Of a stretch of 64,000 nt of DNA, positions 2,035 to 58,482 are shown piece by piece. The number at the start of each line of letters is the position of its first letter. The first letter of the stretch is position 1. The notes beneath the pieces are model-generated. The model saw only the letters and a list, made by a program, of their open reading frames with translations. It was not told the DNA's origin and searched no databases. The translations under genes were made by a program, and so were the position numbers. Origin of the DNA: Acanthamoeba sp. SK_2022b (lineage: Eukaryota; Discosea; Longamoebia; Acanthamoebidae); the NCBI GenBank assembly GCA_027943245.1, contig JANDJZ010000131.1, forward strand, positions 31,934-95,933, in the 5' to 3' direction.

Positions 2035-5000
2035 ATGAAGCGAACGTTCGCCGACCACAGCGCTGCAGACGTGCTAGCGTATGACGACGGCGATGATAAT
2101 AAGACACATGGGGATGCCATGGAAGAACAAAGCAGAGCAGGACGAGGTCGCCCTAAGGCACCGGCAGCACAGAAGTCAGCCAAGCGTCTGCGTACCGTGT
2201 CCCTGCTTTCGCTGGAGCCCTTTGCCTTCCTTGTGCGAGCGCCGCCGGTTGCCTATGCCCAGCACTACTGCCACCTCGCGGACCACATGGAGGGTCTTAT
2301 CAACGAAGACTTCGCAGGCAGTGAGCGCCCGTTCGCTGCCGCTGTGTCAGTTCGTGGAGATGAAGAGGGGCGCACCGCCCAGTTTTGGTGCGCTGCAGAA
2401 GGAGGTGCCGCCTGGCTTGACGAGGACTCTAAGCTTTTCTTTCGAGAGCAATGGAAGGACATCGAAGCCGTTGTCAACGACTCCAACCAAACTCAAGTGC
2501 TCCCCCCCCACTTCCACCAACTGCGCCAGTCCTTCGTGTAAACCATCCCGCGGTCTTGTATGTACACACACCCGCAGGCTGGCTGGCGGAAACTGACGTT
2601 AGTGGACAAAATACTTGGCCTCTATGATTCCGAAGCGTGGAAGAGCACCCAACATCAGGCAACGCTTTGCGCCCAGCCACGCCACAATGTGCAACTGATC
2701 CACATTGCCTTCTGCTCGCTTACGCGTGTATATGTGTCATTACAGACCGACTACATGCCGTTTGAGCGTGAGGTGTGGTGGGTTAAAACAGCACGAGGCT
2801 GGTTCACAAGTGACAATAGTTCTTCCTATAAGGGCTACCTGCGTGTTGCTGCTTCTGCGCTCATTCTGGAGCTCTGGTTTGTCGCCCCTCCTTTCACATT
2901 TTCTCTCGCCCACACATATTGTCCAACGCTCTTCTGTCTGCTCGCCGGACAGGTACCGCTTTGTTTGGGCAGGCCACACCTACCGCGCGTACAGGGACAT
3001 CCAACATCGAAGGAAGGAGGCTTCGCATAGCGGGAATTTTCTGCAAGGCTCGGACCAGCATGCTGAAGCCGAGTCGATGGACGAAGAAAAAGACATCAAG
3101 AACGAGTACGACAGCGAAGAGGTGGTCGATTCACAGACCTTGCACGGCTCGACGGCGCACGGAGACGACGACGGAGATGACGACGAAGAGGAGGAAGCGA
3201 GTAGAGGCAACGAAGAGATAGACCTCGTACCTGCACGTCGGCGTGCACGGAGTTCAGATGTCCCCACCAAGCGAAGAGATATAGACCAGACACATCCTGA
3301 GGACAGTGGAAGCGAAAGCGAAGACACCGACGAGGCGGAAGAAGTCATGTCGTCTTCCGAGGACGCATCCGATGATAAGAACAACGAGTTCATTCCATCG
3401 GTGGTGAGCGTGTTCTTCGCTCACGCGACCATCGTCCGGGCGTTGGACGCAGCCGAAAGCCGTTATTTCGAGCGGCTGGAAGCCGCGGATCGTATGCTGG
3501 CCATTGCCACGCCATCGGCTCCCACTTTCTCACCGTTCGGGTCGTCGGTGCCTCGCTCGAGTGCAGACTCTGTCTCTGTTGAACCTCCGATCGCCCAATA
3601 CGTAAGTGCCCCGGCGCTAGCGGCTTAGTGATCGGAGGCCTTAACTCCTAATTCGCTTCCTTGGTGTGCTGCAGTGGTGTTTTGAGGAGGTCATGGGGGC
3701 GTTTGTGGAGCTTGTTGAAAGGCGAAACAACGACTTCAAGATGATCGATCAGCCGTCGCGCGCAGACATAGCGAGGGATCTCTGCAAACTGTACAGAAAG
3801 AGGTTCGTCCCGTTTCTGCACATGCTGGGCATTGAAGTGGCCGGCGTCACGTCGATTTCGACAGCTTCGGCAGGACAGTTAGGTAGCGATCAAGTATGAA
3901 CCCCCTTTCCCTCATGTGTTCCACCGGCCGTAGTTCAGTTTTCCCCCACACCTATTTGGTCCACACTACACCAGAGCGATCAACTCTTTCGGTGGAGGTG
4001 GCGCCAGGGCATGCCCTCCAGGTTCATAGAGCAGGTGCGTGAGGAGGCAGCCCTTCTCATTAATGTTTGTTTGTTGAGCATTTAAGCGAATGGCACGTGT
4101 GGCAGGTGTATGTGACGTGCATGCGCAACATTACCTGCGATGGCACACTTGCCTGCGGACGACACATCCTGGACCTGCTACCAGAGATCTTCCTACTCGC
4201 TGACTCTCGCCTCGACGCCGTCCTGCCACAGGTAAGCCTCCCTCCTCCCTTAAGTCTGCCGGAGCCACTCGCCATGCCTGACATCGGGCGGTCGCGATTC
4301 CCCAGGCCGCCACGAGACTGGAAGAGGTCCTTAAAACCAAGGGCAAGTTTGATGAAGAGGTGAGCTCTCTGGTCACCATGCTCGATGAGCTGCTCGCTGA
4401 AAAGGTGCGCTTTGTGAAGAAAGTCGAACTCTCTCATGCCCTATTGCCGTTAGCTAACGGCAGTTGCTCACCGTCGCCGCCATTGTGGGCTAACCACCGT
4501 ACAGCAAGCGATTATCCAGAGCCGGCAAGCCCAACGTGCGCTCAAGGGCAACGAAACCGTGAAGCAGCTGATCGGGCAGCGAGTCGAACAGCTTAGAGGT
4601 CGACGCTTGCAGGAGATCGAGGACACCATCCACGTCATCGAGGCCGAACTCAACAAGCTCACCGCCAGTGCCGACCGCATCTCGCCGTCTGCGCTATCCG
4701 TCATACAAAAGCGAGATGCCTTGGCAGGAGGCGATGATGAAGACGAAGCGGCAATGTTTCCGCCCAAACCCAAGAAGCTCAAGAAGAGGCCTGACAGGCT
4801 ACCGCGCACCAAGGAAACCGAGAACGAATACTCGATGTCGCTCGCGACGGCATGCCGTATACTCCATGCAGCGTGCGCCGACTCCAAGTACGTGTGATCC
4901 TCCCCCTCGCCTTTCCTCGATAAAGCCACAGTCCCTTCCGTTGACGCTGAACATCCGTGTCCCTGGCTCTCGCAGCACCGTGCTCATGTCCCTGAGCCCG

Positions 5001-40609: not shown

Positions 40610-43402
40610 CTACTCCACCATCATCACAGTCGAGGAGCTCTGGCCAAAGACATCAGGATCGTACATCTCCTCGATCTTGGCCGGTGGTACGATGAAGCGG
40701 CCTGAAAGGATAGAGGAAAGAACACGTGTAAGCCTACACCCAAGCAAAATCGATTTGAGGCCCTGAGGCAAAGTACCGGGCGTGGTCGCACGCGCGGTGT
40801 ACTCGTAGATGTAGGAGGTGGCTTGGAGCTGTGACGCAAAGCACTCTACCCTCTCATCACGCAGGTTTTGCTGCGTTGGGCGATGGACGGTCAGCTAGGG
40901 TTGACTCACTGTGTATAGAAAGGAAAGCGTACATGGTCAAACCAGGTGGGCGTCGTGGTCTCGGCCTTCTGCTTGCCCTTGTTGTCCGTGGACGCGTCGG
41001 GACTGGTGCCTGCCTCATCAGGCTGAGGACAGCTGACCTTGAGCACGGGATTCTCGGCTTCGAGGCCGCCTGGCAGCTTATCGACCAGCGCGATGTTGAA
41101 CCTCGGGAACTTGGTGGTCTGTACCAAGGGAAAGAGAGAGGAAAGACGCAAGGAGTGGAGTAAGCTCCTGAGACTTGGTGGTGGGGAAGGAGTTGAGGCG
41201 TACGATGGTGAGCTTGGTGCGAATGACAGCGCCCTTCTTGACGTGCCACACGCCGTCCGCGTCGCAGGAGACGAACTCGGGATGCTCTTTGTCTTCGGCC
41301 ATGTACTGCCTCTCCACGCTGAAGCCCCGTTGCTTGGCTTCGATCTCCAGCGACTCAGGCGCATAGCTGCAATGACGACGAGCCAGCGATGAGCTCATGG
41401 GGGCAACAGCACGGAGTTGGAGGAGGAGGAGGGCGGCTTCACCTCAATCCCAGCCGGTAGTAGAGGCGACCCTTGCCCTCCTTTTGGATGATCAGGTTGG
41501 CGGTTTCTGGTAGCAACGTCACGATCGCCAGCATGATGCGAGTGTTGGTCACTCATGGATGGGGTATCTCTTGCATGCGTCTAATCTCACACGTACCGTC
41601 TTCCTGCTCAGACTTGCCCGAAGCTGCGCCCTTCTTGCCCTTGGCCTTGCTCTTGCCCTGATCAGCGGCCTGAGTGGGAAAGACACAACATTGATCCAAT
41701 CTGAGTCGATGCGCATGGGAGGGTAGGAGGAGCAATGGGCCTTACCTCGTTCTTGGGGACGTGGGCCGACTTGTGGAGGTCCGTCTGGCCGAAGGAGATA
41801 CCGCCGCCGATGTGGAGCTGCTTGGTCTGGGCGATGGCCTTGGTGAGGAACGGCATGGGGATGTTGATCGTACGCGTCTCGGTGGTGTGGCCCTGGGCCC
41901 AGCCAACCACAATGACAGTAGAGGGCACCGAAGTAGGGTCAGCAAACGTGAAACGGCGAACGGGGTAATCGTCAGTACCTTGAAGATGGTCTCGCCGCAG
42001 TACTGATCGGCGAGCCAGAACCTGACGTTGTAGTCGGGCTTGGTCTTCTCGAACACTGTTGTGGGAGGAAAAAAAAAAAGAGGGTCAGTTGCAGGCCGGC
42101 GACGATCCTTTTCACCCACACTAAACGCACCGGTGAAGTAACGATCGAGGGCGATGAGGGCCCAGCAGTTCTCCTGCGTGTTCTGCCAAATGCCGTTCCT
42201 CCGCATCGACAGCAAGTTCTTGACCAGCTTGCTGATCATCTCGTTCTCCGGGTCGGCGACCACCAACGCCTCCAGCACGATCGCGTCTATGTAGCACCAC
42301 GCGGGTCGAGTTCGTTAAAAAATAAGATAAATAAAGAAAAAATAAACTTGATATCAATGGAAAAAGGATAAAATAGTAAAATAATCAAAATTGTCACTCG
42401 AGCGGGGGCATACCGGCACGGTAGTTGCTGTGGAAGGCTTCGTGGCGAGTGATCTCGTCGTAGAAGGAGGGCACGTGCGCGGTGCCCATCTCGTCGTCAA
42501 CCCTGATGTGGGTGCCCAGGTAGCGGACGAGCTCGTCGGCGTAGGGCGAACGCTTCTGCTTGCCCTCGGCGTCAGCCAGCACGGTGAGGATCAGGCCCAG
42601 CGCCTCGATGGGCAAGCCGTCGGCGGTCTTGCGCACGAAGAAGCTCTCCGTCTCCTTCTTGATGTCGGCCGAGGGCGACAGACGATATCTCGCATACTAC
42701 ACATTCCACGCAGTTAGCGTGTCCATCCAAGTGTGAACTTGGGCGGGGGAAGGTCGAGGTACCAGCGCGTAGGCCATGGTCAGCAGGGTGTAGTCCGAGT
42801 CGGCGTCGTGGCGCTGGTATGGCGAGGAGGTGACGTGCGGCAACACGTCCTTGAGGTACGACGTGAGGTTGCCCTCGAAGAACCACGGCAGACTGTAGCC
42901 CTTGGCCTTGCAGTAGCCCGCACAGTGGGCCACATGGCACGTCAAGAATGGACTATTGCGACGGTGGTCGTCAGTCGCCTCCTTCAAAGCGGTAATGGAA
43001 AGCACTGGCTTCGGCGCAGGGCGTACTCGGTGTAGGAGCGTGCTGTCCACATGCCCATAGCGCCGTCCCTGTGTTGCCTCTTCTTCAAACGCTTGAGATC
43101 GTCGGAGACCAGACTCTTGAGATCCTGCATGGGCAAACAACAATCAGTTAATGGCAAAAACCGCCGTTTGCGGAGAGGGTAAGCCTCCCGTGGTGCTGAT
43201 CACACAGAACCATGAAATGGGAGAGGCGTCGTACGCTCTTCCGAGGCAGCGACGGGCTCTTGAAGATATCCAGCGCATCCCTGAGCGCCACGAGCGCAAG
43301 CAGCTTGGACGATATTTGCTGTACAGGCGCGCGTGTGGTAAAGGAGATAGAGGAACAGCATGAGTCCAAAGGACGGGCCCAGGCCGCCTGAGAAGCACAG
43401 CG

Positions 43403-43470
<68 letters not shown>

Positions 43471-45106
43471 ATACCTCCGAGCACTCATGAGGGTAGCTGT
43501 ACATGTATACAGCTGCGTCTAACAGCCCCTGCAGCATGGTGGAACTGGCCGAGATCTGCGGGGTGTGTGTTTAGAGTCACGCAAGAGCTAGCCAGAGTAG
43601 TACAGCATAGCGGTACCTCGAGGGCGCCGTATTGCGGTATGGCATCGGCAGGCTTGACGATGGTCTGCAGCACGACGTCATCGGGCTGCGAGAGTGTGCC
43701 GTAGAAGGCGAAGGACTCAGTCGTGGCGGGCGGATAGATCGGGAACTCCACGTCGGCCGCATCGCCGTATTTGCCCGCAAAGCAGGTCACCTGCGACCAA
43801 CCCGGCAAGGCGTCAGTGGGGAACGCCCTATGTGCCGCATGCTAGCAAAACAAGAGAGTCGCATGCTGTGCTGCATACCTGGAAGCGTGCCAGACCGGGC
43901 TTGGTGACCTTGATGGGAATGGTGAGCATGCGGCGGCCCTCCTTGGGGATGTGGACCTGGTAGCCCACTTGCCTGCCCAGCTCGTTCTCAAGCACCACTT
44001 CCGAGTGCTCGCTCGTGCGCAGGGCCATCCTGTGTGGAGGTTCGGTTGCGTTAGGTCGCGCGTGTTGTGCCCAGCAGTTTGAAGCACGGAGTCGAGGTCC
44101 GTACATGACGTCGAGAGGTTCGTCGAGCTGGTTTTGGACGATCACGGTGAGCTCGCAACGATCGCCGTAGTTAAGGAAGCGAGGAGGACTGCCGGCGGGC
44201 AACGTTGCGTTTGGGTGAGCTGGCTGATACATCAACAAGCAACACACACAAAACAAAACATATTTACAAACGAGGACGAACCTGCAGCGGACGACCAGGG
44301 GTAGCTGTGCAGTGAGCAGGCTCTCGCCGAGGCCATATCTGAGGCCCTCGTGACTGGCGGCCACAGCCCAGATCCTGTACGGCAATGTCGCGCCAAGTCA
44401 GATTCTTGTGCAACCACAACCGCTTGTCGACACGTCATGGACGACAGAGAAAGAGAAGGAGGTTGCCTGTAGCGAGTGAGGTTATCGGGAATCTTGACGG
44501 CGATCTCTGCGGTGCCGTCTTCGTTGACCTGCACGGCGGGAGTGAAATTGGCCAGCGGATTGAAGTTCGAACGCACGGCGATGAGGGGGGCCGGCTCCTC
44601 GAAGGCCGCTCCTCCATCGTCGTCCTCGTCGTCACACGAATCACACTCCTCCTCGGACCCACGCCTGGCCAAGCTCTCTTTCTCTCTGTAGTCACGCTTC
44701 GCTTCCTTGCGCTCCTCCTTGAGGTTCTTCCTGGGGGCAGCTGCTCTCCTCTTCATCTTCATCTTCATCGAAGATTCATTTTTGGGGCTGTGGGAAAAGG
44801 GTGGTCAGAGTCTAGGGAGAGGCATGGCCTGGCCAGACACGTGTCGTACCTATCGCAAAGCATGTCTCGGGCCATGGGAGCCGGTGCGCTGGAAGATGCC
44901 ATCGCAAAGGAAGACGGTCGGGCGCCGGACGGCGAGGGAGCCATGGACCTCTGCCTGGCAGCGCCACCGCCCCACGAAGGCATGCTGGGGAGCGGGAGGG
45001 CAATGCCGCCCTTCTTCTTCTTCGCCGAATTCTTGAACATTGGTGCAGCCATCTCGCATTCCTGTGAAATAAAACAAACGTTAAGATGAGCTCATCACTG
45101 AATGTG

Positions 45107-45177
<71 letters not shown>

Positions 45178-45791
45178 AGAGGGTACATCGGTACCATCAT
45201 GCACTGACTCTCGTCCTGCTGAGACAGAGAAAAGAGCATGTCCTCGCTTTTGAGGTCCGCCGTGAGTGTATCATTTATCTCCTCCTCGTCGTCTTCATAA
45301 TCGCAGACTTCGCGCGCCTCGTCATTCAGGTCGTCGTCATCCTCCTCGTCCTCGGTCAAGGGCTCACCCTCCCACTCGGCCTCGGGTCCCTCGAGTTCGG
45401 TGCCGTTGTTTTCGTCGTCTGACCACTCGGCCTTGAGTTCGTCGAGGAACAGGACCGGCGGCTGCAGCTGGTGGTTGTCCCATTGCTGTGTTGACAACCC
45501 CCGCCAAACCAAACCGGTAAGGCCCGCAGACAACTAACATGACAGAGCGTCGTGTTGCGTACCTCGACGGCGATCTCCTTACGGTTGGCAAAGCGCTGAG
45601 CGGAGTCCTCGTTGGGGCGCGCGGGGTAAAAGGTGTTGAGCGGGTCCGAGAGGGCGTAACCGGTGAGCGCCAGCACGGACTCGTCGACAACCACAAGACA
45701 CACCTCGGTGCCCACTGCTGGAGCGCCCAAGTGATCCGAGACCTGTGCGTGTGAACATTGTGAGGGCGCGGCGTAGCGTGGCGAATAAAAC

Positions 45792-45866
<75 letters not shown>

Positions 45867-48800
45867 TGTGTGTGTGTGTGTGTGTGTGATAGTCCTCCAA
45901 TCGGAGCACATTTGTGAGGAGCCAACAAACCTTGACGTCGATCGTTGTCTCCCCACCAGGTACGATCTTCTTGGCGCGAGGGGTGACCTCAACGTGGAGC
46001 TTCTTGGTGATCTGAGAAAGGCAACGAACAATGAGAAAATGTACCACGAACACGAGTGGAGTCGTAGAGAGCACAAAGCGGAGTTGTTACCGGAGGGACG
46101 GTGAGGGTGATGCGGGCAGTGCCCAGCGCGGGGCGAGGCGGAGCGCTGCTGTCCCTCTGGCCGTCGACATTGAGCCGCTCAGTAAGGCCGACGACGTCGA
46201 CCTGAATGGCGATGCTGGGCGCGTAGTCCTCGATGATCGGGACGCTGACCTCTGCCGAGTTTAGGGGCGGGGGCAAGTGCATTAGCAGCTCGCTGCACAG
46301 GCCCCAAGGGGGAAAACGCTCGTGGGGGGGGGCAACGCACTCTCTGAGACCGTGTTGATGCGAACAGTGCGCGTCTTGACAATGCCCCGGCAACGGGCCG
46401 TGACCACGGCTGGAGGGAGAGAGGGCGGCGCTGATCAGCAGAGAGCGCCGGTGGAAACAGGAAGGAGGGAGGGCAAATGCGTACCATCGCACGGCGCGAA
46501 CGGGCAGGTGAGTGTCAGCGAAGCTGTGTCGCCGATGCGGTAGGAGGCCTTGTCGGCTACCAGCGTGAGCTTCTCCTCGTCCACACGCTCCAGCTCTTTG
46601 GTAGGCGTCACGACTGTCGCACGCCACACGTACGTCAGCTGAGCCTCCACTCCGGCCCACTCGCACTTGATAGTGACAAGGATAGGCGCGTACGCTGGGG
46701 CGTCAGGAGCAGCAGATCGGTGGGTGGAGGGGCAGTCGGCTCGGCAGTCGGCTCGGCAAACATTTCGCAAGCCGCGTGCTTGCGTCCTTCCGGGTCCTGC
46801 ACAATCGCGTAGAGCTCATACGTCTGCACGGCCAGTGTGGTGCGTGTTGCGTGTGCGGTGTGAGGTCAGCGAGAAGCGAGGGCATCCTCATTGGCGCATG
46901 GATGGGCCTGCTGGGTTGAAAGGGAACGAACAGGAGCGTTGGCAGAAAGGCTGTCAGGGCTGATGACGTAGGGAATGGGCTCCTTCTCGGACTTGATGAC
47001 CTCCAGCTTGAGGACCGTCTTCTGGCCGCTCCACCGCTCGAGGGCGCAGAGCTGGATGGTCACGTCTACCATGTCTACAACGTTACCGTCGTGGTCGGCC
47101 ACGACGATGTCGATCACGTAGGGCTCGTTCAGCACCGGGTTGGGGGCATGCTTGCGAAGGCCCACGTAGTAGAGGCACGGGTGCAGGATGAGCTGCGTGG
47201 TCGTGGTGATCGACTTCCTGTTGATGTCCACGATCTCGATCAGGGCCGCCAGCGACACCGGGCGCGGCGGATCGGGATAGCCCTGTCGATCCACGAAGAG
47301 AGCGAATGAGCCAGAGCGGGTGAATGTGTGGACGACTTCACATGAGATCCGGGACAGCTTCACGCACCTTGAACTGGATGAGGACTTTGTGCTCGCCGGA
47401 TTCGCGGGTCTTGCCCTTGAGCACCCTCTGGCAGGCCAGCTGGGTGGGCTGCGCGAGCACGAGCTGCTTGGCGCAGGTGAAGGTGAAGTCCTGGAAGCCC
47501 GGCGGAGCAAACGTGCCCGAGGTTGAGGAGACCGTCCACGTGACATCTAGAGGTCCATGTGGCCGAGAGATCGATTAGCTGACATTGTTCGTACAAAAGC
47601 TTTGCGGGAAGGGGAGTGCATGCCGGAGTCAGCGAGAGCGCCACCCGCGTAGTAGGAGCCCTTGGCCTTGACCAGCGCCGACGCCTCGAACCAGATGGGC
47701 GCCTTGGTCTCGACCTCGGCTTCGGCAATGAACTCGGGGCGGCGGAACTACACTCGCGTGCTGTTTGTAAGGCTGATTATGGTCGCCGAGTTTGAAAGAG
47801 GAGAGCAGGTTACCTCTTGAACCTGGAAACGGTGGACGTGCTCATACTGCTGCTTTCCTTCGTGCTCCTCGAGGTGGATGTGAACCCCAGCGTCACCCAA
47901 GTTGATCTGAAGGAGGAGCGAACAAATGTTGAATAAACATGAAATAAAACAATCCAACAATGAAAATAAAAGCTATTATTACGAGAAGACGGATAACGCA
48001 TGGAGGGAGGCGCACGTTATCGGGGAGTGTCAGGGCGAAATGGAAGGTGCCGAGCCCCGTGAGGAAGAACTCGCCCTTAGTGATCTCGGCCGACCTCGAA
48101 TCGAGTAGCTTGTAGATGCACTTTTGCATCTTGGGCACCTCCAGCTTCTCAAAGTGCTCCTGAGCCGCTCTCTACAAATGACCCAAGCGCGTCTCACGTC
48201 AGCACCGTTTGATGCGTGTGAACGGCGAGACATGTCGATGCAGCACGTACCTTGAGGAAGCGAACGTAGCCCTTGATATGTACTTCTTCCTTGGGCCGAT
48301 ACATGCTGATGGGAGCCGAAGGCAACGTCAGTCAGTGAGCCCGCAGACGGCAACTGTAGTAGGTTGGTACGTGCCTGCGATCGTCAAAGACGTGCCACAG
48401 CAGGTTCTCCTCGGCGACGAGGGTGGGGAAGGTCCACACGTTGGCGATGAAGGTGCAGTCCTTGCCCTTCTTGGCCACGAGAAGCGATGACCGGCTGGTG
48501 TTGTGAGAGAGCACGGCGACACCGTCCTTGTTGGTCGTCACCGTGTCCGGGGCCTTGCGTTCGAGCGTGCAGTTCTTGATGCTGATCGCACTTACGTCGA
48601 TGTCGCGCGGCGAACGGGGCGAACGCGGGGAGAGCGGGCCGTCGGCCCTGGCAGCTAGGGCCCTCTTCTTCTCGATCTGCTTCTTGTCGGGGAGCAGGAG
48701 CAGCTGTGCGCCCATGATGGACTTGCGCTCGTGCCAGGACACGTGTACGCCCTTCATGTTGCCGCCCTTCACCAGGTGGGTGGCCCACGCGTGGACCGTC

Positions 48801-51502
48801 TGGAGGCTCTGGAACACATCGAGACCTGAACCCAACCAGAACGTTCCATACAGCGTGGGTATGAGTGAACCATGATGGTCTCGCCCCGGGCGTCGAAGGA
48901 GGGAACGCACCGATGTGGGTGCACTGAATCCAAGCCTTGATGATGTCCCGCTGGCGCCATGTATTGGGGTAGTGGCCTGACGACGCACGAGCATCCGCCA
49001 AGGGGTGATGTCAGACGATTGTTACAGGACCAGGAGATTGACATGGGGATAAAGCGGAAAGGAGGCAACGCACTCTTGGAGGTGGGGGTGATGACGACGC
49101 CGACCTGACCGATGTACCTCTTGGCGTCCTTGAGGGCCGGGCTGAGGTCTACCACAAAGTCCACGTACACGTCCTCCTTGAAGTTGGCCACGGGCAGCAC
49201 CTGGTCGTACACGAGCTTGCCAAAGCTGGAGTATAATAAAAGCGCATGCTGTTAGGGAGCGCGCTCTAACAAGCCTGCGGTCCGTGACGCCACGTGTACC
49301 CGAGGTAGTCGTGAGTCTCCGACTTGCTCTCGCTGGCGTCCGTGTGGCTGGGCTCCTTGCCCCATTTGTGGTAGTGCTTGCGAGGGTTGAGCCTGTGCGC
49401 AAGGCGTGATTATGAGACACTAAACTCAACACAGCACGTTGTGGCGAGTTGAAGGCCCGTACTTGTAAAGACACACGCGCAGCTCCTTGTAATTGAACGC
49501 CTTGATGTGGTACGTGGGAGCCTGCTTGGTCGCGGTAACCAGCACTGGGTCGTACACGATGATGCCAGTCTGCGGCGGATTGGACACGGCACGCGAACCA
49601 AGGCGGTCAATGGCTCGATCCAATGGCCCGCGCTGGGGCAGGAATAATAAGGCCGTAGAAACTTACCTGGAAGGCCTTGAGCGCTCGTGGGCGCGGCGGT
49701 TCCCAGACCTTGACCTCCCACTCGATCTTACCGACGGGTTCGGAGCCGTCCTCTGGGATGGGCGCGGCGTCGTTGCCCTTGATCAAACCCAGGCACTGGC
49801 CGTAGTAATCTCGCACTGCCTGATAGTCGATCTCCACCTTGTAGACTGTGTCTCCGAGATGCTGGCTGCTTCTGAAGTGCAACGTCTTGTACGACGTCGT
49901 GATGGTCAAGTCTGTCATAAACAAGTGGTGAGTGTGTCACAATCGTTGGTAGCCGCACGGGACGAAAGAGAGAGAGAGGGCGAAAGGGGAGAAGCTGTAC
50001 CGGCCAGATGAGGAGTGACCTTGATCTTGGAGACGTCAAGCGACTGGGCGTTGACTCTGTTGGAGAAGCGGATGAGCCACTCGGCCTTGGGGTAGATCTT
50101 GGCGTCCTTGTTGCGCGGGTGGTAATTGGCCACCTTGAACTCGGGCACCGTCTTGAAGTTGAACCTGTGGACGTGCGAGTCCTTGAGCGGACCCTCGGCC
50201 GAGGGAATCTGTATGCGTACACGCGCAAAAAGGAGTCACACAGTGTCAGCCGTTGATCGGCTAAGGCGCAAGTGCTCACTTCGAGACATTCTTACCTCGG
50301 GACCGACTTGCACGTAGATGGTCGAGTCCCCGGCGAAATAGTTTACAGGCTTGAACGCCACCCAATAACCCTCATGCCTGTGTGATGTTGAAGTGGTTTG
50401 TGTAAGTCGCGTAGTGGGTCGCTATATGAAAGCGGAGGTCGGTACCTGGGAGTGTTGATGCGCCAGAACGGCGAGGCGTTGACCTCCTCCACGGTCATGA
50501 GGCGGATGACGTAGTGGGTGTTCCACGAGCTCGTGACTTTGATGCTCTGGAGCACTTCCTCAGGGTCCACATACTGATCGAACTTGACGAACATGCCGCA
50601 GTCGCGCTTGCGGCCGCCACCCGGCGGCGGGAACGAGCTCTTGACCTTGATGGTCGGCGTGGTGAACTTGGCCTCGAATTCCTCGGCCAACGAGTCGCCG
50701 TAAGCCGAGTTAGCACCGGCGGGAACCTGAATCAGAGCGACGTTGAGGTTGGGTATACACCCCTCTTCATACACAAGACACCCACCACAACCAATCGATT
50801 GCGGCAAGCATGTTTCTGGTACCTTGACGGTGTATTCGGTCGACTTGCTCCACTTGGGCGACGGGTGATAGACCAACGTCGTCGCATCAGCGAAGCGCCA
50901 CTCACCGCCGTCTTCGGGTTCCGGTTCGACAGTCGGACGCCAATCCTTGTATGCAGATGTGCACACGTCAGCGTAAGGCCAATGAGAGACCCAAATAGCT
51001 GGATAATGAACGTGAAGTTGGTGTGAAGACGTACCAAGTCTTCGACCTTGGGCGGCACCGAGAACACGAGCGGCTGATTGAAGTTGAGCTTGATCGGGTC
51101 CACTATGCCCAGCACGCGCGACTGATACACTGGTGTGGAGAGCAGCAAATGACGACTCGCACTCATAGGAGGCATAGGCACGCGCAAGCCTGGCGAGGTG
51201 GCGGTACCATTCACCGAGAGCGGATGGACAGTGCTGAAGCTGAAGGAGTGTTCGGAGCCCAGGAGGGCGCCCTCGAGCGATGGAATCTTGTCGATCTTGA
51301 CTGTGACATGAGTCTTGGGCGGGAACGGCTCCGAGCATCGGAAGACGAGCCACTGGCCGGGCTTGGCGTCGAGGAACTGGGCGGTGCGGAGTATCGTGGC
51401 GCGCAGGGCATGCACCTCATCATCGCCCAACAGGGTCACCGTGCCCATGCTCTTGAAGCGCCACTGTGAAGCTGACACCTGCAGTGTTGTGTGTGGTGTG
51501 TG

Positions 51503-51568
<66 letters not shown>

Positions 51569-52900
51569 CATGGGTGAGCATTGCGCTACATTACTTGCCC
51601 GAGAAGCACACGTATGTACCTGAATGTGCTTGATGACCTCGGCGGGGTCGATCTTCTGGTCGAAGCACATAGCGATGGCCGGGTCAAGGACCTGCGCCTC
51701 TCCGCTATCGACGGAGGTGCGTTCGACTTGGGGAGCGGCGGACTTGTACTCCTTCTTGAACGGCTCGATGGGCTCGTTGTAGAAAGACACTACGCTTGCC
51801 GGAATCTGCCGGTCCCGAAAAAACATCAACGCCAACCACGCAATTACCACGAGCGATAGGGAGTGTGCGGTACCGTGATAGTGAACCGGGTGGCCTTAGG
51901 CCAATCGCACGGCGGGCGGTAGCAGAGCGTGTGTGCGTCGATCAAGTTCCACCCAGGGGCGATACTCGGCTCCTTGTCAACCACGGGGACCGAGGCATGC
52001 TCCGCTTCGGCCTCAGCCTTCTCCTTACCCTTGTCGGACTCCTTTTCAGGTTTCTCGCGTGGCGATTCCGTGACTTCCGCCTCGGCCTCACCTTCGTTCA
52101 CTTTGTCCTTGTCGCCTCGCGGGGTCTTCTTGCCGCGGGGCGTCTTCTTGCCCTTGTCCCCCTTCTTGGATTTCTTGGCGCTCTTCTTCTTATCCTTGGC
52201 ATCATTGGGCGGATGTGCGAACGGGCTGTCGCCCAGGTTGACCGAGAGGACGCCAGGACAATCCAGCGCAACTGCGAGCGTTCAAGTAAATCCTCCAACG
52301 TAAGCTATTGAGCGATGGAATTGCGTGCTAGAGACCACACGCACCTGTGGGGAAAAGCGGTCCTTCATCTTCTACTAGCTCCTTGGTCGCCACTCGCTCC
52401 CCGTTCTTCGTCCTGCGCACAGTGAGGTGAGTACAACAGCGGCTGCAGAACCTAGTAGTGCCTGCGGCAACTCTGACGGGGAAGATAGGCTACCAGTAGA
52501 GTTGCTGGCGCTCGGCGTCGATGCCCACGCCGATCACGTCTCCTACTCCCCAGGTGGGCTGACCACTCTGCCCCTTATTCGAGTCGTTGTGGAAGACGCA
52601 GCCGTCATCGCTGTGGTAGCCATAGGCGCTGCGAGACACATGGAGTCAGCTCATCCGGGGCACGTGTGGTGTGCACAGTCAACAATGAAGCAATGCAAGA
52701 CAGTGGAGGTCTGGCGGTACTGTGAGGTCCAGCCGACCATCGCGCGCTTGAGTGGCATGTCGCGGCCGGCAGCGCCAACGGAAATGGCACCGTCCTTGTT
52801 GAGTTGGATGACCTGAGCCTCGAAGTAGGACAGCGAGCCGGGTGAAAGCTCCTTCAGAGCTTGAACGGCGTATGACTAGTGAAGGATCAATATCTAGAAG

Positions 52901-52966
<66 letters not shown>

Positions 52967-55900
52967 CTGTTAAGGATATCTGCTCGCTGCCCTTCTTAGT
53001 GGCTTCAGAGGTCCACTTGGCAGTGTAGCTGTTGGAATCGTAATCAAAGTCCACGTTGGTCGTGTCCGTCCTCCACTTGATCAGCATCTGGCACCGCTCG
53101 GGCGGCGGAGTGAGATGTGGCCTCCACTCCTACATACCACAAATCGTACATGTTAGCACTCACGCGTGGCACTGCGAACTGTGTGCTGTAATCACTCTCA
53201 GGTACCAATTGCTCGATCTTAGCAACACCATGCGGAGAGACCAGGGGCTGAGTGAAACGCAGGGTGATTTCGCTCTGGGACCTGAGGGTGAAGTCGGGCG
53301 CGTCTGGACATTGCAGGCCCGCCTCAATCAGAACGAGAGCGGGGATTGCAGCCAGCAAGGGAGGCATGTCGATACCAAAGACACTGAAGCGAGGAACTGT
53401 GCGGAAGTTGTAGCTCTGCGAGCGCGTCGTCGGAAGCGGGCCTTCAGCAGACGGGATCTAGGGGGGAGGTAAGACGAGGCAGAGGGCGCACAAAAGAAAG
53501 TAGAAGTGCGCGTACATTGCCGTCGATCTTGACCGTGACGTTGGAATCGTGCAGGAAGTTCTTGGTGCACCTGAAGGCCATCCAGCAACCGTCCGCAGCC
53601 CCGTGTTGGGCGAGGAACACCTGAAGCAGGGTGTCGCGCTCAACCTCCTCCTTGGAGAGCATTTGCACGGGCGCGTAGGTCTTCTTGGTCAGCTTGCTCA
53701 GGAAGCCCTACACAAGCCAAGCCAAGGCCAGCAACAGAAAGCCATCAAATGAGTGACACGAAACGACTTTGTGCGTCGCGTGATGTGGCCTACCTCCTGG
53801 CTAAGCGCGAGAGAGACGACAGGCAACACTTGATCGGGGTTGACCGCCTGGTTGAAGATGATGGCCATCGGGCAGTCCAAGGCCACCTTACCGCTGGGGT
53901 AGGTATGCAGGATCTCGACGCGAGGGGTGGTAAAGGAGAACTTGTACTTCTTGTGCAGGGGCTCGTCAAAGGCCGACCGCACCCCATCGTCCACCTTGGC
54001 AATTGCCGCAAAGCCACTGTGAGGAGTTTGTGTGCTACATCCCGACAGGATGGCGTGGCAGTACCTTGACTTTGTACTTGGTGGACTTGGCCCACGTTGT
54101 GCCCTTCGCGAGAGTATAGACCAGCGCGTTGGCGGACCTGAGGCTCCATTCACCCTCGGGAGGTATGGGTGAGATGACCGGTCTCCAGGCCTGCACAGGT
54201 TTGCGTTGCGCGATCGGGTCAGCGCCGTAATCGGCCCGTGATCTCAACGGGGCGAGGGAAGCGGTACCAGGTCCTTAATGTCGACGGGATCCGCAAGGGG
54301 ATGGTTGAACGTGATGTCGATCTGCGTGGTCTGATGATCGCTTCCTACCGGCGAGTGGGCTGCTCGCAAGCCGCAATCCCCTTCGTCAGATCCACCATGC
54401 TCATTCCGGAGGGCGAATTTGGGACCCGGGGGGGGGGGCGCACCAGTGGCCGCGAACTTGGGGAGCACTGTGAAGGTGTGCGACGATGTGTACGGCGACA
54501 GCACTGGTCCCTCGGCAGATGGGATCTGATAGGAGGGGTGAGCGCCAGCCAGCATGCCCGCCCTTGGAAGGTCCGTACCTTGGGGCCGATCTTGACGGTG
54601 ACGTTGTCTTCGTAGTTGAACGGCTCGACAGGCTGGACGGCCAGATAGTGATTCTTGGTCTTGTTGTAGTTTCTGGTCTCGGGCATTTCGTCGACCTCCT
54701 CCTCGGTCAGTAGGCGAAGCTCGTGCAGGCCGCCCCACCGCGACGAGGACACATGTATGCAACGGATCACCTCCTGTTCGTACACGCGGTAAGTTATATG
54801 AGTAGGTGCACCTGGGTCCAGTGCGCTGGGTCGGCGCATGAGCGCCAGGGGGCAGCGTGTCTCGTCATCCTTACCTCGGGTTCGATCTCCTGGTCAAAGT
54901 CGACGAGGATGACCGGTTGTCTGGCCACCATATTCTGCATAGCGCGAGGGTACGCGTTCCGCACGGTGATCTGGGCCGAAGTGAAGGAGGACGAGTACTC
55001 CTTGCCCAACGGGTCCTCCCAGAGCGACATGGCCTCAGCCGGGATCTGTGTCGTAGTCCCATCAGGCGCATGCCCACGCATACAACACGCATTGCGTACA
55101 CACGGAAAGGTAGTGCATACTGTGATCGTGTACTGGGTGGAGTGGGTCCAGGTCTTCTTGGGCAGGTAGGCCAGGGTGTGGTCGTTACTCAACTGCCATT
55201 CACCACCTTCCTTGGGCTCGGGTTCGATGGTGGGAACCCAGCCCAGATCTTCTAGGCCGCCTCCGGCAACGACAAGTGGCTGCGTGAAGACAACCGTAAC
55301 AGAGCTCGAATCCTGGCTGCCCAGCTGCTTCTTGTTCTCAGGGCGCACAGCTAGATGTCAACAACACGTATTAGTGAATTCAGATAAGCCGAGTGGCCAC
55401 CATTCAATGATAACCCGCTGGCTCGAAGTGATGAAGTACGTACTGCTAACGGAGAACGGCTTGATCGTGCCGAAGGAAATGGAGTGTTCTTGGTCGTTAA
55501 GGAGCGCCCCCTCGGCCGAAGGTACCTGGGATCGAGCCGCATGGGTGAACACCGCACACACAATGCCGTCGGGATTGGTGAATCGGTACCTTGGGGCCGA
55601 TCGACAGATAGACCGGGCTGTCGTGCGGCAGCAGCTTGGCGCTGGTGAACACCAAACAGTGCTCGCCGCCATGGTACTTCAAGAACTTGTCGAGCTGCGC
55701 ATACTTCTCGCGCCAGCGCTTGGTCTCTGCGTCATCCAGCAGGCGCAAGGCCGCATAGTTGCTCTTGATGATCGACGAAGTAAAGAGCCTGTGACGTTTG
55801 TGTGTGAGTGTGTGAGAGAGAGAGAGAGAGAAGGAGAAAACAGCGTAACCGACGAAGATAAAGTTGATTGATATACCTAATGGTGCTCAAGACTTGCTCT

Positions 55901-58482
55901 TCCTTTCCGGTGATCTTCTGGCGGAAGGCGACGGCCAAAGGTGCCCCCACAGGAACGGCGACGTCGTTGTTTGCAGGCATGGTGGCGCTGACGCTGTTGG
56001 TCGGCGAACAGAACGAGAGCTCTCTGTCGCTGGCCTCCTCCGGCCCAAACATGCCACCCTTTTGCTTGAGCTCGGCGCCGAACAGGCTCGGCGTCGAAGC
56101 GGGCAGCAGGACGTTGTATTCGGTAGCCAGCTGCCAGCTGACGCCCGCCGGCAGCGAGTAGATCAGGTCGCGGTCCGTAGCAATCCAGCTGCCCTCCTCC
56201 GGCGGCGCAGGTGTGATCGTCGGCAGCTCGGTCAAGTATTCGGCGGTGTAGGTGCCGCCAACGGGCATGATGGGCTGGTTGAAGGCAATGGTGCAGCTGC
56301 CTGAGTTGTTGCAGAAAATGCCTGTAAAGCAACCATAGACGGTTTCACATCAGTTCCGCCAGTTCAACTATCATAACAGCGATGATGATGTAATGCGAAG
56401 GGACACATACGGGAGACCTCGAACTGCGGGACCGTCGTGAAGGTGAACACGTACGGCTCGACTGTAGTCAGAGGGCCCTCGGCCGATGGCGTCTGTGGGC
56501 AGCAAAAATGTGAGGAACACACTACTTTACATATCTTGTAGGCGGAGTGCGGATACCTGAGGCCCAATCCTAACCGTGTAGGTGGAAGCGTGCGCGAGGA
56601 GCTTCGTGCAGGAGAAAGCGAGGGCACGACCCTCGACCGCTGGGTCCAGAAAGCCTTCCCTCACGTCTTGGTCGCTGAACGTTCAAGACACGGATGGTGT
56701 GAGAAAACAACCGCCGAGTTTATCACGCGGGGCAGGAGCAGAACATACGCAAGCAGCTCGGCTGAGTCACGCTCGAGGAGTCTCAGCGGCGCGAACGGCG
56801 CGGGAGCCTTCTCCCATTTGATGTTCGTGCCGGCGTAGAGGCCGATGGTCTTCATGACGTCCTCCGGCGTGATGACCTGGTCGAAGATCACGAGAAACAC
56901 CGGATTGAGCGGCCGCCGGTCGCCGTCACTGCGTCTGCCCCCAGGAGAGGGAGGACACGAGGTGATGACCTGTCGAGCGGTCAAGGCGAATTGATCCACA
57001 GGGTAAGAGATCACCTCCACTACCACCACAGCACACATACGGGAGCTGCGTGCCTTCACAGTCGGCGTCTTGAATGTGAAGGAGAAGTCCTCCTTCAGCA
57101 TGGGCTCATCGTCACCGAGGGCCTTGGCTCCTTTCGGTATCTACACAATGGCAAACGAGGTGAGGGCTTCGAACGGGCGCAGCGTCACACACCGGGCGGC
57201 GACGACGACGAGGAGTAGAGGGGCACGCACACTGACTGTGTACTGGGTGGCCTTGGCCCACGCGCGGTCGTCGTCGGGGTTGTCGGTCTGGAAGATGAGC
57301 GTGTTGGCACCATCGAGCCTCCACACGCCCTCCTTCAGAGGCTCAGGCGTGATGAGGGGCCTCCACTCCTGCATGACAATCACAAAGGGGCCTCAGCGTC
57401 AGCCACTGCCAACACATAGCAAGTGCAACTGAACGGTGGCTGGCGTACGAGATGCGTCAGATTGTCGTCTCCCTCGGGAAGGAGCGGGTGGTTGAAGGTG
57501 AGGAAGATCTTGTCGATCTTGTTCGACAGCTGCCACCCCTCGGGCGTGTACTTCTCGACGATCAGCGTGCGCCTCAGCTCGGCCTCCCGTTCAAGCTGGA
57601 GCGCGGCCGCGGCCTTGGCGTCGGCCAACTTGGCCTCGAGCAGCTCGCGCCGCTTATCCTGCTCGGCCGCCCGTTTGGCCTCGCCCTTCTCGAGGGCCTT
57701 GGCCTCCTTCTCGGCCTCCTTGGCGCGCAGCTTCGCTTCCTTCGCCTCCTCCTTGAGCCGCTTCTCGTCGCTCATGAACGCGCGATCGAACTCCTTCTTG
57801 GCCTGCGCCACTTCGCGCTTCCGGCGGGCCCACTCGGCGTCCTGCTGCTCCTTGCGCTCGCGCTGCAGCTCGGCCTCGGTCTTGGGCGCCGACGCGGGCG
57901 GCGGGAACTGGAGCTCCGTGCGCCTGCTCGACGGCAGCTGCCTGCTCTTGTCACGCGGCATGAACGGGTCCTCCTCGTCATCGTCCGTCCCCGCCGTCGC
58001 GTCGATGCTCATGCGTGTCTCCTCGGGCAGCCGCTCGAAGACCTCGTTCACTTTGGCTTGGTCAAGGGGCTCGGGAGGCGGCTGGTCCTTCTGGTCCTTC
58101 TTCCCATCATCCTCGTCCTTCTTCTCAGCCGGAGCGACCTCTTGGTCACCGTCGTCCTTCTCGTCCTGCAATACTCGTGTTAACAACGTACTTTTTAATC
58201 ATTAAAAAAATAAAAACAAATAAAAATAAGAAAATAAAAATAAAAATAATTGTATATCTGGGTGGAGCGTACATAGCTGCTAGCTTCTTCGCCCTCTCCG
58301 GCATCTTCCTCGTCGGCCTGCTCCTTGAGTTCTTTTTGCTCCTCTTCAATGAGCTCTTCTTTGGCCTGAGCTTCTTTTTGAGCTTTCTCCTCTTCCTCTT
58401 TGACTTCCTTCAGCTCGAACTCGAAGTGCGGTGTGGCCTCATACGCCTTCTTACCCTCTGGCCCATCACCCTTCGTATCCAT
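40610..58482 (-). CDS. Giant bacterial-type alpha-2-macroglobulin with SPRY insertion
   Basis: One chain of exons over 17.9 kb, probably 3,500-4,200 residues by rough sum. N-terminus MDTKGDGPEG is charged, coiled-coil, with no signal peptide. Six beta-sandwich modules follow (about 57.5-50.1 kb), each with a W.P..P.P..G.W opening, a FDQ-type strand, an IPSAEGPL hinge and an F.F.TV closing strand. Then the standard bacterial A2M order: WIQCTHIGLDVFQSLQTVHA, RRMYRPKEEVHIKGYVR (about 48.3 kb), VVVDESVLALTGYALSDPLN (45.7 kb), a charged bait-like stretch (44.6-45.5 kb), FNPLANFTPAVQ...KIPDNLTRYR (44.5 kb), the thioester domain with CSEQ (43.48/43.32 kb), and the C-terminal PPAKIEEMYDPDVFGQ, ending at 40610. 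A2Ms trap proteases through a bait-triggered thioester. The start is the only in-frame ATG after a stop, but an undetected upstream exon is possible. Confidence 0.85.
43316..43483 (-). other. Thioester motif CSEQ, split by an intron
   Basis: Codons for Cys (43481-43483), Ser (43478-43480) and Glu (43475-43477) end one exon (YSYPHECSE); Gln (43316-43318) opens the next (QISSKLLALVAL). The Cys and Gln form the internal thioester in this family. The 156-bp intron between them contains a TG/CA array. Both catalytic residues are intact once spliced. Confidence 0.85.
43406..43469. repeat. (TG)n microsatellite in thioester intron
   Basis: 64 bp of perfect TG repeats (CA on the sense strand) starting six bases inside the donor of the intron that splits CSEQ. 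Confidence 0.95.
45108..45174. repeat. (TG)n microsatellite, A2M intron
   Basis: 67 bp of perfect TG repeats between the acidic exon ending near 45,180 and the exon beginning ECEMAAPMFKN. Confidence 0.95.
45793..45888. repeat. (TG)n microsatellite, A2M intron
   Basis: About 95 bp of TG repeats with one GG interruption near 45,859, in the intron before the exon coding VSDHLGAPAVGTEV. Confidence 0.95.
51505..51567. repeat. (TG)n microsatellite, A2M intron
   Basis: 63 bp of perfect TG repeats, preceded by imperfect TG at 51,484-51,504, in the intron before the exon starting VSASQWRFKSMG. Confidence 0.95.
52208..52875 (-). other. SPRY domain inserted in an A2M module
   Basis: Four consecutive exon pieces spell a complete SPRY fold: LSYFEAQVIQLNKDGAISVG, then MVGWTSQ, AYGYHSDDGCVFHND, PTWGVGDVIGVGIDAERQQL joined to YWTKNGERVATKEL, GPLFPTVALDCPGVLSVNLG and DSPF. 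The YGYHSDDG, GDVIGVGID, TKNG and vNLG..PF signatures are diagnostic. It sits between the fifth module's opening (EWRPHLTPPPE) and that module's next strand (GWNLIDAHTLCYRPPCDWPK), with a Lys/Glu-rich linker after it. SPRY domains are protein-interaction domains, mostly of cytosolic proteins. Confidence 0.85.
52902..52965. repeat. (TG)n microsatellite, A2M intron
   Basis: 64 bp of perfect TG repeats in the intron just 5' (sense) of the first SPRY exon. Confidence 0.95.

What the first reader, a model, noticed from the sequence alone, without database searches (positions are those of the whole stretch)
40610..58482. Giant thioester alpha-2-macroglobulin of bacterial type in a protist nucleus
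Sequence shows the full bacterial-A2M motif order (YRPKEEVHIKGYVR, VVDESVLALTGY, FNPLANF...PDNLTRYR, CSEQ, EEMYDPDVFG) spread over dozens of introns, with six extra N-terminal beta-sandwich modules. Animal A2M/complement proteins lack these FNPLA/PDNLTRYR and MYDP signatures, which belong to the bacterial branch. A bacterial A2M that gained introns and extra modules in a bacterivorous amoeba suggests transfer and remodelling, perhaps as a defence against prey or pathogen proteases (inference).
Basis: partly seen in the sequence, partly recalled or inferred. Interest (0 to 1): 0.88.

Follow-up and report, generated by a model that had tools for sequence, protein, structure and literature searches.

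The report
Intracellular bacterial-type macroglobulin in an amoeba
An amoeba carries a giant, heavily intron-split gene for a bacterial-style protease-trapping protein that appears to have been remodelled to work inside the cell, and a sister gene in the same genome has a ubiquitin domain sitting where the protease bait should be.

Summary
40,610-58,482 (minus strand) fits one gene: 72 predicted exons, about 3,906 aa. It encodes a complete bacterial-type alpha-2-macroglobulin (MG2, A2M_BRD, A2M, CSEQ thioester, bMG10). The best relatives are ~2,100-aa Acidobacteriota proteins (33-39% identity); animal A2M is far weaker. The genome looks like Acanthamoeba (profilin).

Dictyostelium CPRas2 (2008) has a Ras GTPase in what appears to be the same slot.

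Best reading: intracellular A2M traps whose baits were exchanged for host-type proteins. Transfer from bacteria is likely; donor, date and number are unresolved. Bacterial-type A2M in an amoebozoan was already in print. The SPRY and ubiquitin versions and the decoy idea look new, but only 3 paper searches were answered. Function is inferred only.

The parts
40610..58482 (-). Whole gene: bacterial-type alpha-2-macroglobulin, 72 predicted exons, 3,906 aa
   Evidence: Pfam; alignment with five bacterial relatives
57596..58482 (-). Charged N-terminus, residues 1-260 (acidic, then Glu/Lys/Ala-rich, coiled-coil-like by eye); no signal peptide-like stretch
   Evidence: Max mean Kyte-Doolittle over 11 residues in the first 70 aa is -0.55; 120 bacterial relatives: median 2.3 (0.04-3.15), 93 of 120 at least 2.0
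50125..57589 (-). Six tandem units of ~225 aa (Big_5-type Ig-like), each with PSxEG near its end; units 1-6 at residues 263-513, 514-755, 756-981, 982-1212, 1213-1687, 1688-1907
   Evidence: units 28-37% identical to each other (SPRY insert removed from unit 5); predicted intron just before PSxEG (phase 0) in 5 of 6 units and 25-26 residues after (phase 1) in 5 of 6
51955..53096 (-). 256-aa insert in unit 5: SPRY domain (Pfam match 52,827-52,234) plus Lys-rich linker; both edges lie on exons shared with unit 5
   Evidence: PF00622 56.5 bits; nearest solved chains RanBP9/RanBP10, 71.6 bits; edges
47823..48394 (-). MG2 domain, residues 2314-2418 (YRPKEEVHIKGYVR)
   Evidence: PF01835 32.6 bits, cut-off 32.8
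45665..46569 (-). A2M_BRD, residues 2698-2855, ending VVDESVLAL
   Evidence: PF07703 58.1 bits
44568..45664 (-). Bait region, residues 2856-3110: about 255 aa, strongly charged (65 D/E and 32 K/R in residues 2854-3109), no Pfam domain
   Evidence: VVDESV-to-FxxLA spacing 259 here, 120 in the sister gene, median 111 (97-134) in the 78 of 120 bacterial proteins where both motifs were found
44026..44543 (-). A2M domain, residues 3119-3204 (IPDNLTRYR)
   Evidence: PF00207 47.1 bits
43316..43483 (-). Thioester motif CSEQ (residues 3336-3339); an intron containing a (CA)n tract falls between CSE and Q
   Evidence: CxEQ pattern in 120 of 120 listed relatives: 115 CSEQ, 4 CTEQ, 1 CAEQ
40652..41326 (-). 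bMG10 domain, residues 3743-3893, with the C-terminal EEMYDPDVFG
   Evidence: PF17973 109.6 bits

Best explanation
The gene encodes an intracellular alpha-2-macroglobulin of the bacterial Ig-like (COG2373) kind, most likely acquired from bacteria long ago. Shown by sequence: the complete A2M chassis, including bait slot, CSEQ and bMG10; no visible secretion signal; a six-unit arm; a SPRY insert; a 255-aa charged bait. Inferred: the arm grew after intron gain, and the protein works as a suicide trap in the cytosol. A protease cuts the bait, the thioester is released and covalently captures the cutter. The SPRY domain and the arm position the trap on a partner or cargo. A second gene of the same family in this genome carries a ubiquitin with an LRLRGG tail in the bait slot, and Dictyostelium CPRas2 carries a Ras-type GTPase in apparently the same slot. 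This suggests that amoebozoans swap baits for host-like domains that report on particular proteases, such as deubiquitinases in the ubiquitin case.
For: 72-exon open model with A2M, BRD, bMG10 and Big_5 over cut-off and MG2 just under. CSEQ conserved. No hydrophobic N-terminus and no in-frame ATG between MDTKGD and the in-frame stop upstream of it. In the sister gene the AMP-binding-enzyme gene upstream stops about 190 bp before the ATG. SPRY nearest to RanBP9/10 inside the arm. Sister gene: ubiquitin at residues 1261-1332, between BRD (1085-1232) and A2M (1355-1442); its terminal GG and the A2M start share one exon, and the frame is open across both joins. The ubiquitin insert is 56 of 75 identical to ubiquitin, and 0 of 15 recalled binding-face and tail residues are among the 19 changed (p = 0.007, face list chosen by me); 21 of 46 ubiquitin-like places listed in the genome are 76-78% identical to it. 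DdiCPRas2: cpRAS at 2844-3013 between A2M-type blocks 2140-2771 and 3158-end of 3,933 aa.
Against: No RNA, protein, localisation or activity data. Absence of a signal peptide rests on hydropathy alone; the sister protein scores 1.43 near its start (the first strand of its ubiquitin-like domain), below the bacterial median 2.3 but above the bacterial minimum 0.04, and 27 of 120 bacterial relatives also fall below 2.0. Host deubiquitinases normally process ubiquitin fusions (recalled), so the ubiquitin bait might be cut all the time. Nothing shows that a thioester forms or survives in the cytosol. The window gene's own bait has no recognisable domain. cpRAS in the bait slot is inferred from published block coordinates, not aligned here. 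The window gene and its sister are 31.5% identical, less than either is to bacteria (medians 39.4 and 37.9), their arm units likewise (22-27% against 32-35% sister-to-bacteria), and 1 exact shared intron among 41 and 43 (plus 6 within 3 columns) is no more than chance allows (mean 0.34, maximum 4 in 5,000), so they may not be one eukaryotic lineage. The sister gene model was trimmed by hand.
Confidence: 0.5

Rival explanations
1. A2M-shaped intracellular container or scaffold: the chassis is kept for its shape and for SPRY-mediated binding, and bait cleavage is no longer used, as may be the case for the CAGE assemblies of Tetrahymena and Dictyostelium.
For: CAGE proteins are also large, some of their sandwich domains match A2M best, most bacterial ones are predicted to have signal peptides and eukaryotic ones generally lack them; function unknown (PMC12485934). 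The window bait is unusually long and charged.
Against: CSEQ and bMG10 are conserved in both amoebal proteins, which a mere container would not need. The CAGE authors found no known PFAM or SCOP domain, whereas this protein has six Pfam families over cut-off.
Confidence: 0.22
2. The protein is after all secreted or delivered to the phagosome, through an upstream signal exon missed here or by unconventional export, and guards against proteases of prey bacteria.
For: Animal and bacterial A2Ms act outside the cytosol (recalled). The amoeba eats bacteria (recalled). The divergent neighbour that would limit the 5' end is only a weak model (score 208.7, no Pfam match in its first 150 aa).
Against: No hydrophobic N-terminus; no in-frame ATG between MDTKGD and the upstream in-frame stop. 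In the sister gene the upstream gene stops about 190 bp before the ATG. SPRY and ubiquitin are mostly cytosolic domain types (recalled).
Confidence: 0.13
3. For the sister gene: the ubiquitin insert is a processing site, not a bait. Host deubiquitinases cut after LRLRGG as they do in polyubiquitin, giving a mature two-chain protein.
For: LRLRGG followed by Gly is an ordinary ubiquitin-fusion cleavage site (recalled; sequence). The recalled binding-face residues are unchanged.
Against: The insert sits in the bait slot rather than at a terminus, and the total spacing (120) is close to the bacterial bait (median 111). Elsewhere 19 of 75 residues have drifted.
Confidence: 0.1
4. Assembly artefact, bacterial contamination or pseudogene.
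For: The assembly does contain a bacterial-looking contig, C309, with an intronless 1,995-aa yfhM-like frame.
Against: 71 predicted introns with GT-AG or GC-AG ends, no internal stop in 3,906 codons, GC3 0.82 in this gene and 0.83 in the sister, and a CSN8/PSMD8/EIF3K-family gene 118 bp downstream.
Confidence: 0.02

Closest known systems
Bacterial Ig-like (COG2373-type) alpha-2-macroglobulins of Acidobacteriota and Chloroflexota
   Same: Same domain order Big_5 - MG2 - BRD - bait - A2M - CxEQ - bMG10; 33-39% identity over the listed 120, about 40% at best over the core columns
   Different: The 120 listed are 2,107-2,190 aa (the search admitted none shorter), 93 of 120 with a clear hydrophobic leader, 93 of 120 with exactly one PSxEG (21 none, 6 two), bait spacing ~111, and no SPRY in the 5 scanned
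Dictyostelium discoideum CPRas2 (EAL60755.1 as printed in PMC2430557), 3,933 aa
   Same: Amoebozoan, similar length, A2M-type blocks of bacterial affinity in the C-terminal half, transfer from prokaryotes proposed in 2008
   Different: Carries a circularly permuted RAS domain in the apparent bait slot; its N-terminal part was reported without recognisable domains.
YfhM (4ziq, 5a42, 4rtd) and bacterial A2M 4u48, 4u4j (E. coli and Salmonella, species recalled)
   Same: Best solved relatives: 168-174 bits with the family profile
   Different: Periplasmic lipoproteins (recalled) with chains of 1,614-1,647 aa; not the nearest subfamily
Animal A2M (6tav) and TEP1 (2pn5)
   Same: Thioester and bait mechanism (recalled); 37 and 31 bits with the profile
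   Different: Much weaker match than bacterial A2M, secreted (recalled), no bMG10 or Big_5 array (recalled)
CAGE complex (AbpF in Dictyostelium)
   Same: Giant protein, some domains most like A2M by fold; most bacterial members with predicted signal peptides, eukaryotic ones generally without
   Different: No known PFAM/SCOP domain reported for it; the word thioester does not occur in the text

Membership tests
Alpha-2-macroglobulin superfamily, bacterial (COG2373-like) branch | BRD, A2M and bMG10 domains in order | tested here: met
   58.1, 47.1 and 109.6 bits, all over cut-off; MG2 0.2 bits under its cut-off
Alpha-2-macroglobulin superfamily, bacterial (COG2373-like) branch | CxEQ thioester motif in the thioester domain | tested here: met
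   CSEQ at 3336; C, E and Q columns invariant in the six-row alignment; CxEQ pattern in 120 of 120 listed relatives. The TED Pfam model itself was not hit in this protein
Alpha-2-macroglobulin superfamily, bacterial (COG2373-like) branch | N-terminal signal peptide or lipobox (secreted or periplasmic) | tested here: not met
   hydropathy only; no dedicated predictor was available. A difference of compartment; homology stands on the other features
Alpha-2-macroglobulin superfamily, bacterial (COG2373-like) branch | Bait cleavage leads to covalent capture of the protease | not testable with these tools
   Needs biochemistry
Animal A2M / complement / TEP branch | Closer to animal than to bacterial A2M | tested here: not met
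   bacterial chains score far above animal ones (in one search some PLL lectins, up to 25 bits, also outrank animal A2M); no animal sequences were in the trees
DdiCPRas2-type A2M | Circularly permuted RAS domain in the bait region | tested here: not met
   No domain found in the bait; orthology to DdiCPRas2 itself not tested
CAGE family | Sequence or fold match to CAGE/AbpF | not tested
   No CAGE sequence was at hand; none so named among the 15 matches of the PDB profile search at E 0.01, but whether one is in that copy is unknown
Ubiquitin (insert of the sister gene) | Ubiquitin family domain with C-terminal LRLRGG | tested here: met
   PF00240, 135.2 bits for the protein, two stretches, best 1261-1332; 56 of 75 identical to ubiquitin

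The most novel reading that the evidence does not exclude
Amoebozoa turned a bacterial periplasmic protease trap into a cytosolic alarm-trap family with 'integrated decoys': the bait slot holds a host-type protein (ubiquitin in Acanthamoeba, a Ras-family GTPase in Dictyostelium), so that an enzyme attacking that host protein cuts the decoy and is covalently caught. The window gene is the member with a long generic charged bait and a SPRY-bearing targeting arm. This would be a protein-level analogue of the integrated decoys of plant immune receptors (recalled).
Probability: 0.27. Interest if true: 0.9.

Novelty: new variant of a known kind. Interest (0 to 1): 0.72.

Why it matters
A2M is known as an extracellular or periplasmic trap. 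A cytosolic, thioester-bearing A2M with eukaryotic domains built in would be a new cellular role for the family. The ubiquitin-in-bait sister gene makes the idea directly testable: one cleavage assay and one labelling assay decide it. It would also bear on how bacteria-eating amoebae defend their cytosol, and on how genes taken from bacteria are rebuilt after introns enter them.

Tried and rejected
Contamination or pseudogene: rejected (introns, open frame, neighbour gene). Several separate genes: the gene finder kept one gene, but it also merged neighbouring genes elsewhere, so this is weak. Animal-type A2M: rejected. A hidden domain in the window gene's bait: none in Pfam. A third family member in this genome: none found with PF00207, PF17973, PF07703 or two protein segments; all places fell on C209, C309 and C552 except one chance-level place on C433 (E 0.71). 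These exon-by-exon searches are insensitive: PF00207, PF07703 and Big_5 did not list the window gene itself. Naming the donor: not possible (56 and 22 of the 80 loci used). A clade of window gene plus sister is neither rejected nor shown (p-AU 0.398). Shared intron positions as proof of one origin: not found. Relatives in viral contigs: 104 pattern matches, none a relative. NCBIfam gave no family for this protein. A first hand-edited model was replaced by the guided one.

Literature: 3 paper searches were answered (1 paper; 35 papers, 15 listed; none); 8 failed and met the cap. That the SPRY or ubiquitin architecture is unpublished is therefore not established. Papers: PMC2430557 (passages, and the whole Findings section), PMC12485934 (abstract, Introduction, Results, Discussion, passages), PMC4053784 (passages only). 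A 2004 paper on bacterial A2M could not be opened.
Full report
What is there. The window lies in a 44.9-Mb, 1,129-contig genome. The best-scoring of its five profilin places matches the PDB chains profilin II, I and IA best, 251 bits over 125 residues for the first. I recall these as Acanthamoeba castellanii proteins, so I take the organism to be an Acanthamoeba. On the minus strand from 58,482 to 40,610 lies what fits one gene. A splice-and-codon model without homology scoring and one guided by 60 bacterial relatives share the start and nearly all of the body. The guided model has 72 exons and 3,906 codons, with 67 GT-AG and 4 GC-AG introns of median 81 nt.

One gene or more. The gene finder never split the region, but it also merged neighbours on C552 and downstream, so that alone is weak. 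Unit 6 and the A2M core share an exon, the core matches the bacterial proteins without a break, and units 1-5 are tandem copies joined in frame. RNA is needed to settle it.

Domains. Pfam finds Big_5 (144 bits), bMG10, A2M_BRD, SPRY, A2M and Big_10 over their cut-offs and MG2 just under. The thioester reads YPHECSEQISSK and is interrupted by an intron between CSE and Q. The ending EEMYDPDVFG...MMVE matches the bacterial one.

Relatives. The best 120 were listed: 2,107-2,190 aa, best E 2.3e-223, 33-39% identity; those with organism names are Acidobacteriota. The length rule of that search excluded shorter proteins; no eukaryotic entry appeared, which says little, as only the candidates sharing most words were scored. 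A scan of genome contigs gave 212 relatives among 294 pattern matches; of the 80 kept, most are titled Acidobacteriota or Chloroflexota, with some Myxococcota and others. Against solved structures the family profile scores 174 bits with bacterial A2M, 37 with animal A2M and 31 with TEP1. That profile is mostly bacterial; the window segment alone gives 41 bits for YfhM and 18 for animal A2M, with some lectins at up to 25 bits between them.

Compartment. The first 70 residues have no hydrophobic stretch (maximum mean hydropathy -0.55 over 11 residues; sister protein 1.43; bacterial relatives median 2.3, 93 of 120 at least 2.0). No in-frame ATG lies between MDTKGD and the in-frame stop upstream. 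A divergent gene model begins 263 bp away but is weak (no Pfam match in its first 150 aa). This is a hydropathy argument, not a dedicated predictor.

The arm. Six PSxEG motifs mark six tandem units of about 225 aa, 28-37% identical to each other and 24-34% to the unit of three bacterial proteins. A predicted intron directly before PSxEG (phase 0) recurs in 5 of 6 units, and one 25-26 residues after it (phase 1) in 5 of 6. The simplest reading is that introns came first and the units were duplicated afterwards inside the amoeba. Unit 5 is interrupted by 256 residues: a SPRY domain nearest to RanBP9/10 (71.6 bits) and a lysine-rich linker. Both edges of the insert are on exons shared with unit 5.

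The sister gene. bMG10 also hits contig C552. The model there, trimmed by hand from a run-on prediction, has 45 exons and 2,202 aa with BRD, A2M, MG2, bMG10 and one Big_5 over cut-off, and CSEQ. Its N-terminus is ubiquitin-like (also seen in six frames, 46% identity) and lacks GG. Between BRD (ends 1232) and A2M (starts 1355) lies a second ubiquitin domain, 1261-1332, ending LRLRGG-GDPSM. The final GG and the start of the A2M part are on the same exon, and on the other side the frame continues across a GT-AG intron, so this does not look like a nested separate gene. The gene finder placed these exons without a ubiquitin template. The insert is 56/75 identical to ubiquitin; 21 of the 46 ubiquitin-like places listed in the genome are 76-78% identical to it. 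None of 15 binding-face and tail residues, listed from memory, is among the 19 changed (p = 0.007). Bait spacing is 120 residues, close to the bacterial 111 (measured in 78 of 120); in the window gene it is 259, highly charged and without a known domain.

Dictyostelium. A 2008 paper describes CPRas2, 3,933 aa, with a circularly permuted RAS domain at 2844-3013 between two blocks (2140-2771 and 3158-end) similar to bacterial COG2373 proteins. It notes a second Dictyostelium COG2373-like protein without GTPase and proposes transfer from prokaryotes (PMC2430557). The distance from the start of the second block to the C-terminus (776) resembles that from bait to C-terminus here (about 805), so the RAS domain appears to sit in the bait slot. 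The parts I read do not call it a bait.

Origin. The window gene and its sister are two very long branches. In the 59-row quick tree a 99% branch sets them, L070 and the outgroup apart from the other 55 rows, with a long-branch warning. In the 24-row careful tree without that outgroup (end branches 3.57 and 4.25) no well-supported set holds either. Holding them together is not rejected (p-AU 0.398). They are 31.5% identical to each other over 1,193 columns, while their medians to 22 bacterial rows are 39.4% and 37.9%. One exact shared intron position among 41 and 43, and six within three columns, is within chance. One or two old transfers from bacteria, or a deeper eukaryotic presence, all remain possible. 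Intronisation of laterally acquired genes is known in A. castellanii (PMC4053784, passages; the word macroglobulin does not occur in that main text).

How it probably works. Shown: the A2M chassis with bait slot and CSEQ, no visible signal peptide, eukaryotic inserts. From established knowledge of A2M (recalled): bait cleavage triggers a conformational change that exposes the thioester, which binds the protease covalently. Inferred: the same happens in the amoebal cytosol. The ubiquitin of the sister gene would make deubiquitinases the trigger; the charged bait of the window gene would respond to many proteases; SPRY and the long arm would aim it. The main doubts are that host deubiquitinases might cut the ubiquitin insert routinely and that no experiment exists. 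CAGE assemblies, whose eukaryotic members likewise generally lack the signal peptide most bacterial ones have (PMC12485934), show that a role other than protease trapping is possible.

Verdict. It missed that the protein is probably intracellular, that it carries SPRY, and that a sister gene has ubiquitin in the bait slot. Bacterial-type A2M in an amoebozoan is not new; this architecture appears to be a new variant, with a testable mechanism.

Noticed in passing
G000:C552:20838-31427 minus (L091, L092): Second intron-rich A2M gene with a ubiquitin domain in the bait slot and a ubiquitin-like N-terminus; the gene just upstream is an AMP-binding (CoA-ligase-like) enzyme.
   Followed up: yes
G000:C309 (433 kb; L001): Contig with an intronless 1,995-aa yfhM-like bacterial A2M frame; looks like a bacterial contaminant or associate in the assembly. 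A 16S check failed because the tool was busy.
   Followed up: partly
G000:C36:10980-11300 (L007): Big_5 match in a 1,291-aa open frame; bacterial contaminant or another transferred gene, not examined.
   Followed up: no
window 43.4, 45.1, 45.9, 51.5, 52.9 and 59.4 kb: Long (CA)n tracts, five of them in predicted introns of this gene; one lies in the intron that splits the thioester codons.
   Followed up: no
window 40,491 minus: CSN8/PSMD8/EIF3K-family gene (PF10075, 99.5 bits for its first 150 aa) starts 118 bp after the A2M stop codon, same strand.
   Followed up: partly
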